DNA of 64,000 nt from Candidatus Chlorohelix allophototropha. Its GTDB lineage: Bacteria; Chloroflexota; Chloroflexia; Chloroheliales; Chloroheliaceae. The notes under the pieces are model-generated. The model was not told the DNA's origin. It was given only the letters and a program-made list of their open reading frames with translations, and made no database searches. Of the stretch, positions 11,043-13,786 are shown piece after piece. The translations under genes were made by a program, and so were the position numbers. Position 1 is the stretch's first letter; each line of letters begins with the position of its first letter. Location: assembly GCF_030389965.1 (NCBI RefSeq), contig NZ_CP128399.1:2408934-2472933 (forward strand). The letters are read 5' to 3'.

Positions 11043-11567
11043 TTACAGATCTAACATTAGCGGTTTTAAAATGGCTTTTTCGTGCTGAAGCAACCAGCGT
11101 TTGCGCTCAAGCCCGCCCGCATAGCCGGTAAGGGTGGCGTTTGCCCCGATTACTCTGTGGCAGGGTATCACAATTGCGATAGGGTTAAGCGAATTTGCCA
11201 AACCAACTGCGCGTGCTGCGTTGGGCTTACCCAATTTTGCCGCCACTTTGCCGTAAGAGGCAACTTCTCCCGCCGGTATATCTCGCAAGGCTGCCCATAC
11301 CATTTGTTGAAAAGGTGTGCCGCCGGGATTTACGAGGATTGAATTAAGGCAATTAAAGTCTCCCGCTAGATAAGCGCGTAATAAACTGCTGAAACCACAC
11401 GGGTCGGGACTTTCTTGAAGTTGGGTATTTTCGTAGCGTTGTTGCAACAATTTGAACATACGTGCCTCATAGCCGGTATAATCCAGTGCGCACAGGCGGT
11501 TGTTCTCTACTACGATTATTATTTCTCCAATTGGAGAATCTATTCGATCAACCAACAAGTTAGGCAA
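11043..11567 (-). CDS. ogt: Methylated-DNA-[protein]-cysteine S-methyltransferase
   Basis: A 174-residue suicide DNA repair protein that removes alkyl groups from O6-alkylguanine onto its own cysteine. The active-site motif IPCHRVIG with its acceptor Cys is present, preceded by the helix-turn-helix DNA-binding part (PAGEVASYGKVAAKLG, AARAVG with the arginine finger) and followed by YAGGLERKRWLL. Length matches the Ogt/MGMT family without an Ada N-terminal regulatory domain. Single gene on the minus strand, convergent with the DoxX-like gene. Confidence 0.93.
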   Translation of the reverse strand: MPNLLVDRIDSPIGEIIIVVENNRLCALDYTGYEARMFKLLQQRYENTQLQESPDPCGFSSLLRAYLAGDFNCLNSILVNPGGTPFQQMVWAALRDIPAGEVASYGKVAAKLGKPNAARAVGLANSLNPIAIVIPCHRVIGANATLTGYAGGLERKRWLLQHEKAILKPLMLDL

Positions 11568-11680
11568 AACTCACATCCCCACAAAACATTGCAAAATAGA
11601 ACGCTAGGGCAGTATAAGTCATTCCTGAATGTTAGTAAAACTAGCTGTTGTATAGGAAATAAGTACCGCATGTTTCAAAT

Positions 11681-11709
11681 TTGATTAAAGGAAAGTTATA
11701 ATGTATAAA
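11681..11709 (+). promoter_or_regulatory. Promoter of the Nif11-type peptide gene
   Basis: TTGATT at 11681-11686, a 17-base spacer and TATAAA at 11704-11709 give a good sigma-70-type promoter about 40 bases before the start codon. An overlapping TATAAT at 11697-11702 offers a second -10. Confidence 0.5.
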
Positions 11710-11749
11710 ATGTGCCGTAATTGAATTTGATAGATAAAGGAGTTAATTA

Positions 11750-12043
11750 ATGTCGGGAGAAAATGCTTTCTCTTTTTTGCGTAGAATTGGTACTGACCTT
11801 GCACTCCAGAAGAAATTGATAAATCGCGGCAACTTCGGACCTGAGGTTTTGCTCGAAATAGCGGCGGAAGAGGGTTTTGTTTTCAACCTCGATGATTGGT
11901 TAACAGCAGTACACGCTATTTACGGGGAAACTGAAGAACTATCTGAAGATGCGCTTGAACAGGTTGCGGGCGGTAACTTCGATCTTTATAACAACAGCGC
12001 AGTTCAAAAAATCGTCAAGGTTAGCTATAACTGGATAAAATAG
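11750..12043 (+). CDS. Nif11-type RiPP precursor peptide
   Basis: A 97-residue peptide. Residues 1-75 match a Nif11-like leader: an amphipathic helical start (ENAFSFLRRIGTDLALQKKL), the central EEGFVFNLDDW element and an acidic helix ending in LSEDALEQVAGG. The Gly-Gly is the expected cleavage point for a C39-protease exporter. The remaining 22 residues (core, beginning NFDLYNN) hold no Cys, so a lanthipeptide core is unlikely; two Tyr, a Trp and several Asn/Ser/Lys are present. AAAGGAG lies 7 bases before the ATG, and a good promoter precedes it. No modifying enzyme or exporter lies in the window, so the peptide is an orphan here. It could also be a diverged nitrogen-fixation-associated Nif11 protein without a RiPP role, but the GG motif argues for a precursor. 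Confidence 0.75.
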   Translation: MSGENAFSFLRRIGTDLALQKKLINRGNFGPEVLLEIAAEEGFVFNLDDWLTAVHAIYGETEELSEDALEQVAGGNFDLYNNSAVQKIVKVSYNWIK

Positions 12044-12078: not shown

Positions 12079-12768
12079 TTACAGGAAAGTTTGCAACTTC
12101 TCTTGGTCTTTAATCAATATGTAGCCTCGTTTCGCCTCAATTGCACCCGCTTTTTGCATAGTACGCAAAGCACGTCCCACCATTTCACGTACTGTTCCCG
12201 CCATCGCCGCCATTTGCTGTTGGGTAAATTGGCTGGTGACTTGCTCGCTTATGCCCACACCCAATATCGGCTCTTCTCCTAAACGATTCAGCAGAAGCTT
12301 TGCCACTCGCGCCGAAACCTGTTTCAGCGAGACTTCCGCGATAAGGGTGGTCAGATGTCGCAAGCGTGCCGAAAACACTTTTGCCACCGCGCGCGCCACC
12401 GCTGGTTCGGTTTCCAACAAGGTTCTGACCGTTTCTGCCGGTACTATCCAGATAGTACAATCATCAACCGCATCGACACTAGCCGGATTCTGCCCTCCAT
12501 CAAAAACGGGTACTTCATTAAAAGAGGTTCCTGCCCCCGCCAATCTTAAAACTTGCTCGCGACCACCCGGTTCAGCCTTGAAAATGCGAACGCGCCCCTT
12601 CACCACGTAATATAAGCCTCGGCAAGGTTCTCCCTCAAGAAAAAGTATTTGCCCTGCCTCATATTTTTCCTCATAGGTGGTTGCCGCCAATCTTTCCAGC
12701 GTAAGACTATCCGTCTCTAACCCGGCAAAGAATGGAATACCTCTAAGCAACTCCTTATTGCTCACCAT
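12079..12768 (-). CDS. Crp/Fnr family transcriptional regulator
   Basis: A 229-residue regulator with an N-terminal cyclic-nucleotide-binding-like beta-roll (about 10-130; GQILFLEGEPCRGLYYV) and a C-terminal winged helix-turn-helix (about 150-225; FTQQQMAAMAGTVREMVGRAL). There is no N-terminal cysteine cluster, so it is not an oxygen-sensing Fnr with a 4Fe-4S cluster; the effector could be a nucleotide, heme or none. It is divergent from a hemerythrin and a ferredoxin gene across a 115-bp gap, which suggests it controls them. Confidence 0.9.
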   Translation of the reverse strand: MVSNKELLRGIPFFAGLETDSLTLERLAATTYEEKYEAGQILFLEGEPCRGLYYVVKGRVRIFKAEPGGREQVLRLAGAGTSFNEVPVFDGGQNPASVDAVDDCTIWIVPAETVRTLLETEPAVARAVAKVFSARLRHLTTLIAEVSLKQVSARVAKLLLNRLGEEPILGVGISEQVTSQFTQQQMAAMAGTVREMVGRALRTMQKAGAIEAKRGYILIKDQEKLQTFL

Positions 12769-12883
12769 AACTCAATCTCTTTTACAAATAATTAGCTAAG
12801 CGACTTTTGTCCTATTCATCAGGCGCTTATGAATATATAGTTACCTTAAGTTTATCAGGTTTTAACAAATATTGGAGGAAAAG

Positions 12884-13465
12884 ATGTTGCTTAATTCTAT
12901 AAATAAAGGTGTAGCTACCGGCGTTCTGCGTGAAGAACATGAAGCTATATTAAAAGTAATGGGCTTCTTTGATAAAGCGCTCGACCGACTCGAAGCTACT
13001 AAGCCTGTTCCCCTAGATTTTCTTGAGGGAATTGTGGAATTTTTCAGCTTGTTTGCAGACAGATGCCATCACACTAAAGAAGAAGAAGTACTGTTCCCAA
13101 TGATGGAAAGTTTCGGTATCCCAAGAGAGAACGGACCAATCGGGGTAATGTTGAATGAGCATACCTTAGGACGTGACTATGTGCGCCAAATCGGTGAAGG
13201 CGTTGCACGGCTGCAATCTGGAGATAATAGCGGCAACGCGCTACTAATTACCGCCGGAACTAGTTATAGTCGTCTGCTGCGGGAACATATCTTGAAAGAA
13301 AATCAGGTTCTTTTTATGCTGGCGGATAATGTTCTGGATGCCACCATTCAGGCAAAGGCGTTGGCGCAATTCGAGAAACTGGAAGTGGAAAAGATGGGCG
13401 AAGGTACTCATGAACGGTTGCATGCCCGGATTGATATTATGGAACAGCAAGCCTCAAACTGGTAA
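12884..13465 (+). CDS. Hemerythrin HHE-domain protein
   Basis: A 193-residue four-helix-bundle protein expected to bind a di-iron centre and handle O2, NO or iron. Candidate ligands are in the order seen in bacterial hemerythrin-like proteins: His in REEHEAI, the HH-x4-E of CHHTKEEEVLFP, His in NEHTLGRDY, and HILKENQVLF. ATG 12884 is chosen because GGAGG lies 5-10 bases upstream; the longer frame starts at a TTG that is part of that site. It is 15 bp from a ferredoxin gene and divergent from a Crp-type regulator. Resembles Hr-like proteins associated with nitrosative stress, but sequence cannot separate the roles. Confidence 0.85.
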   Translation: MLLNSINKGVATGVLREEHEAILKVMGFFDKALDRLEATKPVPLDFLEGIVEFFSLFADRCHHTKEEEVLFPMMESFGIPRENGPIGVMLNEHTLGRDYVRQIGEGVARLQSGDNSGNALLITAGTSYSRLLREHILKENQVLFMLADNVLDATIQAKALAQFEKLEVEKMGEGTHERLHARIDIMEQQASNW

Positions 13466-13480
13466 CGGAGTGACCTTTTT

Positions 13481-13786
13481 ATGGCTTATGTAATTACGCA
13501 AGCTTGCCTAGATGTAAAAGAGCGTGCCTGTGTGAGTGTTTGTCCAGTAGATTGCATCTATGAGGGTGACGAATCAGATCGGATGCTCTTTATTCACCCT
13601 GAGCAGTGTATTAATTGCGGAGCTTGCGAAATGGAATGCCCTCATTTTGCCATTTATTCTGAGGAGGATGTGCCTGAAAAATTGAGGGCTTTTGTTACTA
13701 TCCAGCGACTCTTTTTTGAGGAACCAGCTAAAGCGCGGGAAGAGCTTAACCGTCTTTATCCACGTTCTAGTTGCGGTGTTCTCTAA
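13481..13786 (+). CDS. 7Fe-type ferredoxin
   Basis: A 101-residue ferredoxin with eight cysteines at 9, 17, 21, 25, 43, 46, 49 and 53. The spacing is the same as in FdxA-type 7Fe ferredoxins, where the first, second and last cysteines hold a 3Fe-4S cluster, the third and those of CINCGAC hold a 4Fe-4S cluster and the fourth is free. [10 protein letters not shown] and [11 protein letters not shown] are family signatures. It starts 15 bp after the hemerythrin stop and probably supplies electrons in the same stress response or di-iron chemistry. A strong terminator follows. Confidence 0.93.

What the first reader, a model, noticed from the sequence alone, without database searches (positions are those of the whole stretch)
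11750..12043. Orphan Nif11-class RiPP precursor with a Cys-free core
Leader with Nif11-like features ending ALEQVAGG, then a 22-residue core with Tyr, Trp, Asn, Ser and Lys but no Cys. No modifying enzyme or exporter lies within the window. It has its own strong promoter. Orphan Nif11 precursors often serve promiscuous enzymes elsewhere; a Cys-free core rules out lanthionine rings.
Basis: partly seen in the sequence, partly recalled or inferred. Interest (0 to 1): 0.65.

Follow-up and report, generated by a model that had tools for sequence, protein, structure and literature searches.

The report
Solitary Nif11-leader secreted peptide precursor
This small gene encodes the precursor of a short secreted peptide with a well-known type of detachable leader; its exporter lies on the organism's other chromosome, and it probably yields a plain cationic helical peptide rather than an exotic modified one, so it is a new member of a known kind.

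Summary
ORF 11750-12043 is a 97-residue protein with a 75-residue Nif11 leader (TIGR03798, 47.3 bits, cut-off 32.3) ending ELSEDALEQVAGG and a 22-residue Cys-free core, NFDLYNNSAVQKIVKVSYNWIK. It is a solitary gene. The window holds no modifying enzyme or exporter. The genome's size matches 'Ca. Chlorohelix allophototropha' (Chloroflexota).

Elsewhere in the genome there is one complete NHLM/C39 exporter (chromosome 2), a radical SAM C-methyltransferase and a cyclase-less LanM, the last two each beside its own Nif11 precursor. There is no LanC domain and no YcaO. All 16 double-Gly Nif11 cores found in this family lack Cys, so that trait is not special here. The leader groups (support 0.97) with the genome's other precursors that lack a linked enzyme. 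The core is amphipathic as a helix (p = 0.007), whereas cores beside the radical SAM in related genomes are strand-like.

Best reading: cut after GG and exported by the unlinked NHLM transporter, released as a plain or little-modified cationic helical peptide. In-trans modification remains possible. It is a new member of a known kind. The side finding, a cyclase-less LanM with an aldo/keto reductase and Cys-free precursors, is the more unusual item.

The parts
11750..12043 (+). Nif11-leader precursor gene, 97 aa
   Evidence: ORF; PF07862 and TIGR03798 above curated cut-offs
11750..11974 (+). Leader, residues 1-75, Nif11 domain
   Evidence: TIGR03798 matches residues 1-75 over the full model; up to 47% identity to leaders of a paralogue array at C1:2007-2010 kb
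11936..11974 (+). C39 recognition and cleavage motif ELSEDALEQVAGG, residues 63-75 (L-12, S-11, L-7, V-4, G-2, G-1)
   Evidence: Register computed; same positions as the TIGR03798 consensus ELSDEELEAVAGG (PMC2887384) and the residues required by LahT150 (PMC6363468)
11975..12040 (+). Core peptide NFDLYNNSAVQKIVKVSYNWIK, 22 aa, no Cys, 2 Ser, charge +2, pI 9.4
   Evidence: Translation, composition; helical hydrophobic moment 0.63, p 0.007
11736..11742 (+). Ribosome-binding site AAAGGAG, 7 nt before ATG
   Evidence: Read from the sequence
11674..11702 (+). Possible promoter TTCAAA-17-TATAAT (weak -35, perfect -10)
   Evidence: 10 of 12 matches; chance 0.085; not proof

Best explanation
The gene makes a secreted peptide by the double-glycine route. 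The Nif11 leader carries the precursor to the genome's single NHLM exporter (HlyD-like, C39-peptidase ABC and second ABC subunit) on chromosome 2. The C39 domain grips L-12, L-7 and V-4 and cuts after Gly75, and the 22-residue core NFDLYNNSAVQKIVKVSYNWIK is released. I infer that the core acts without rings and most likely with no or little modification, as a cationic amphipathic helix working on membranes or as a signal, in the manner of class II bacteriocins. Shown: leader family, motif, exporter with intact C39 residues, absence of LanC and YcaO, and amphipathicity above shuffles. Inferred: that this exporter takes this substrate, that no enzyme acts on it, and the biological role.
For: Leader above the TIGR03798 cut-off with the exact C39 motif. 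One complete NHLM exporter, TIGR03794/03796/03797 all above cut-off, at C2:225.8-232.9 kb, with Cys, His and Asp of C39 in place and no precursor near it. Among 61 genomes, the four with Nif11 leaders above cut-off are all among the five with the NHLM ABC1 above cut-off; the one family member without leaders lacks it too. This leader clusters (0.97) with the six other enzyme-unlinked precursors of the genome. The core's helical moment is high (p 0.007), as in two enzyme-unlinked precursors of a related genome (p 0.04 and 0.08), while three radical-SAM-linked cores are strand-like (p 0.004, 0.008, 0.07). The AlphaFold model places a helix at residues 83-96, at low confidence.
Against: Most characterised Nif11 precursors are modified (general knowledge). 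Other enzyme types not searched for could act in trans. Another enzyme-unlinked precursor (L011) and most array cores show no helical signal. The core helix in the model has pLDDT near or below 50 and was folded from a single sequence. The pairing with the exporter is by co-occurrence in one family, so not independent of phylogeny. No orthologue was found to show that the core is under selection.
Confidence: 0.5

Rival explanations
1. The core is modified in trans by the radical SAM C-methyltransferase (TIGR03975) at C1:1606.3-1608.2 kb or by the cyclase-less LanM at C1:752.3-754.3 kb, then exported: methylated, or dehydrated and reduced, but ring-free.
For: Both enzymes exist in the genome and sit beside Nif11 precursors with Cys-free cores. 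Leaders share 36-37% identity. Prochlorosin precursors are often far from their LanM (PMC7268733).
Against: Each enzyme has its own adjacent precursor with a different leader type. This leader falls in an enzyme-less clade. The core has only two Ser and no Thr, while LanM-linked cores have 4-7 Ser/Thr and radical-SAM-linked cores 4-6.
Confidence: 0.27
2. It is a substrate of some other unlinked enzyme (for example a Lys- or Tyr/Trp/Asn-directed one) not searched for here, shared with the array at C1:2007-2010 kb.
For: Seven precursors with one leader subtype in one genome could reflect one shared enzyme; the core has Tyr, Trp, Asn and Lys.
Against: No candidate enzyme beside the array or beside this gene; this core shares no similarity with the array cores beyond shuffles.
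Confidence: 0.15
3. A silent remnant or a non-secreted Nif11 protein: a stray paralogue of the array, transposed and no longer matured or exported.
For: Solitary, lineage-specific, adjacent to housekeeping-type genes; paralogues lie among insertion sequences.
Against: Intact frame, good ribosome-binding site, intact motif at the positions needed by C39, exporter retained.
Confidence: 0.08

Closest known systems
Nif11-derived peptide precursors (N11P, TIGR03798; Haft et al. 2010, PMC2887384)
   Same: Whole leader model, ELSxxxLxxVAGG motif, leader 75 and suffix 22 (family averages 69 and 23), variable core, paralogue expansion, NHLM exporter in the genome
   Different: No linked modifying enzyme or transporter; core poor in Ser/Thr and free of Cys
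Prochlorosins and cyanotins (Nif11-leader precursors of Prochlorococcus and other cyanobacteria)
   Same: Nif11 leader, diverse cores, precursors remote from the enzyme; some cyanotin cores also lack Cys (PMC7268733)
   Different: The genome has no LanC cyclase domain, so no lanthionine product is possible
Unmodified double-glycine class II bacteriocins and peptide pheromones
   Same: GG leader, C39 ABC export, short cationic amphipathic core; weak sub-threshold hits to Bacteriocin_IIc and ComC covering the GG region
   Different: Long Nif11 leader instead of a short one; no recognisable immunity gene or two-component system beside it; activity untested

Membership tests
Nif11-leader precursor family (TIGR03798) | Leader scores above the curated cut-off over the model length | tested here: met
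   47.3 bits against 32.3, positions 1-68 of 68
Nif11-leader precursor family (TIGR03798) | Double-Gly cleavage motif with L-12, L-7, V-4 | tested here: met
   Residues 63-75 ELSEDALEQVAGG, compared with PMC2887384 and PMC6363468
Nif11-leader precursor family (TIGR03798) | Conserved leader with hypervariable core among relatives | tested here: met
   Leaders 25-47% identical to this one, no core scores above shuffles
RiPP (post-translationally modified peptide) | Modifying enzyme encoded with the precursor | tested here: not met
   None in the window; nearest candidates are over 0.8 Mb away and have their own precursors
RiPP (post-translationally modified peptide) | Core is actually modified | not testable with these tools
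   Needs mass spectrometry
Class II lanthipeptide | Cys in core and LanM with LanC-like cyclase domain | tested here: not met
   Core has no Cys; no PF05147 in the genome; the only DUF4135 protein lacks the cyclase
TOMM / azole peptide | YcaO cyclodehydratase | tested here: not met
   No PF02624 in the genome
Unmodified double-Gly bacteriocin | C39 ABC exporter available in the genome | tested here: met
   TIGR03796 1134 bits on chromosome 2, catalytic residues present
Unmodified double-Gly bacteriocin | Cationic amphipathic core | tested here: inconclusive
   pI 9.4, charge +2, helical moment p 0.007, but 16 cores were tested and the structure model is of low confidence
Unmodified double-Gly bacteriocin | Antimicrobial or signalling activity | not testable with these tools
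   Needs an assay

The most novel reading that the evidence does not exclude
In this Chloroflexota family one Nif11 leader family and one unlinked NHLM exporter serve three separate product lines: radical-SAM-methylated strand-like peptides, ring-free dehydrated and reduced peptides made by a cyclase-less LanM with an aldo/keto reductase, and enzyme-free cationic peptides such as the one at 11750-12043. A leader family regarded as a mark of RiPPs would thus also be a general export tag for plain peptides.
Probability: 0.35. Interest if true: 0.5.

Novelty: new member of a known kind. Interest (0 to 1): 0.3.

Why it matters
It would show that a Nif11 leader is not by itself evidence of post-translational modification, which matters because annotation pipelines name such genes RiPP precursors. 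It also points to peptide secretion in an unusual phototroph, with one exporter serving unlinked precursors on another chromosome.

Tried and rejected
Searches for an orthologue or a conserved core found none: GTDB species genomes, 400 genomes across the phylum, viral contigs, plasmids (only a 36% leader match in a Nostoc plasmid). The Foldseek search of the single-sequence model found nothing significant. I suspected that the core resembles array member 5 or the LanM-linked core KFNLTISRFYITTDTVSVVIKK; neither scores above shuffles. Lanthionine and azole formation rejected. NPQPLPP, found in array cores, is in no paper held. IQ-TREE gave no output, so the leader tree rests on FastTree alone.

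Full report
What is there. The ORF at 11750-12043 (+) encodes 97 residues. It passes the curated cut-offs of PF07862 and of TIGR03798, which matches residues 1-75 over the whole model. The leader ends in ELSEDALEQVAGG, which fits the TIGR03798 consensus ELSDEELEAVAGG (PMC2887384) and places Leu, Leu and Val at -12, -7 and -4, the three positions that the C39 protease LahT150 needs (PMC6363468). The 22-residue core NFDLYNNSAVQKIVKVSYNWIK has no Cys, two Ser, charge +2 and pI 9.4. The ATG is supported by AAAGGAG 7 nt upstream and by a model match that starts at residue 1.

Surroundings. The gene stands alone between an alkylguanine-DNA-methyltransferase-like gene (11043-11567, -) and a Crp/Fnr-like regulator (12079-12768, -), so it is probably its own transcription unit (neighbour names are my reading of the sequences). 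The proposed promoter has a perfect -10 but a weak -35; a pair this good appears in 8% of Markov sequences of that region. Nothing in the 64 kb looks like a RiPP enzyme or exporter.

The genome. It has 6,086,194 bases in five contigs, the first two of 2,961,161 and 2,453,413. This fits 'Ca. Chlorohelix allophototropha' L227-S17 (2.96 and 2.45 Mb chromosomes, 375 kb chromid, 241 and 55 kb plasmids; PMC10972752). That identification rests on sizes only. The genome has nine double-Gly Nif11 precursors. They are this one, an array of five at C1:2007.4-2009.6 kb among insertion sequences, one at C2:2136.5 kb, one beside a radical SAM C-methyltransferase (TIGR03975, 603 bits; C1:1606 kb), and one beside a cyclase-less LanM and an aldo/keto reductase (C1:754 kb). 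There is no LanC-like domain, no YcaO and no second DUF4135 protein. Array member 5 ends in AAG rather than AGG. Two further Nif11-like matches at C1:2912.9-2913.4 kb are below cut-off and were not counted.

The exporter. C2:225.8-232.9 kb encodes a complete NHLM system, TIGR03794, 03796 and 03797, each above its cut-off, with the C39 residues in place and no precursor seen in the 20 kb around it. Among 61 genomes searched, the four with Nif11 leaders above cut-off (all of this family) are among the five with the NHLM ABC1 above cut-off; the remaining family member lacks both. These genomes are related, so the correlation is weaker than it looks.

Which fate for this core. Sixteen double-Gly precursors from four genomes of the family were compared. 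Every core lacks Cys. Leaders are alignable; no other core is similar to this one beyond shuffles. The leader of this gene groups, with support 0.97, with the six other precursors of its genome that have no linked enzyme, apart from the radical-SAM-linked and LanM-linked leaders. Three radical-SAM-linked cores of related genomes alternate like a beta strand (p 0.004, 0.008, 0.07); the core here is amphipathic at 100 degrees (p 0.007), as are two enzyme-unlinked cores of a relative (p 0.04, 0.08). These p values are not corrected for testing 16 cores at two angles, and the other enzyme-unlinked precursor and most array cores show no such signal. A single-sequence AlphaFold model puts a helix at residues 83-96, with pLDDT mostly below 50, so it is only compatible with this.

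Conclusion. Membership in the Nif11-leader precursor family is tested and met. Membership in the lanthipeptides and azole peptides is tested and not met. Whether it is a RiPP in the strict sense is open. The most likely course is cleavage and export by the NHLM system and release of a plain or little-modified cationic peptide; modification in trans by the radical SAM enzyme or the cyclase-less LanM is the main rival. The finding is real but ordinary. The Cys-free core is the rule in a lineage whose searched genome has no lanthionine cyclase.

Side result. The cyclase-less LanM (673 aa, aligned to residues 16-573 of the 979-residue LicM2), the aldo/keto reductase and Cys-free precursors recur together in a second genome of the family (reductase 63% identical, LanM 39%). 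In 43 LanM loci examined from a scan of species genomes, that second genome's locus is the only one with this trio; the great majority encode LanM proteins of about 940-1260 aa, and most of the precursors found beside these carry Cys. Ring-free dehydrated and then reduced products are a reasonable inference, untested.

Noticed in passing
L012:6327-9739 (C1:751.3-754.7 kb) and L051:7315-11082: Cyclase-less LanM (DUF4135 only, 673 aa) with an aldo/keto reductase and Nif11 precursors with Cys-free, Ser/Thr-rich cores, conserved in two genomes of the family; suggests ring-free dehydrated and reduced peptides. Not seen in the other LanM loci scanned.
   Followed up: partly
L027:3794-7981 (C2:225.8-230.0 kb): The NHLM_micro_ABC2 subunit carries an extra N-terminal part of about 700 residues that reads as repeated FHA domains, 1395 aa in all.
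   Followed up: no
L009:11427-13557 (C1:2007.4-2009.6 kb): Tandem array of five Nif11 precursors between transposase genes; three cores begin (I/L)NPQPL(P/T)P, and the last member ends its leader in AAG instead of GG.
   Followed up: partly
L047, L048, L049 around 8-12 kb: In three related genomes the radical SAM C-methyltransferase and its Nif11 precursor (strand-like cores such as VRSISITITIKF) lie beside a conserved protein of about 106-123 aa and a long protein of 937-974 aa with a helix-turn-helix-like start.
   Followed up: no
L023:9798-10073, L054:10039-10257: Nif11-like short proteins without GG, below the TIGR03798 cut-off, next to a long cyclase-domain-like protein; the C-terminus (F/W)FR(L/V)GP is conserved, unlike the variable cores of the double-Gly precursors.
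   Followed up: no
L010:7392-7601: A 69-residue ORF with a double-Gly-like leader (EEVLSDEALDNVSGG) but no Nif11 domain hit, near the radical SAM locus.
   Followed up: no
window 12079-13786: Crp/Fnr-like regulator, a hemerythrin-like protein and a ferredoxin follow one another just downstream, a redox-looking group.
   Followed up: no
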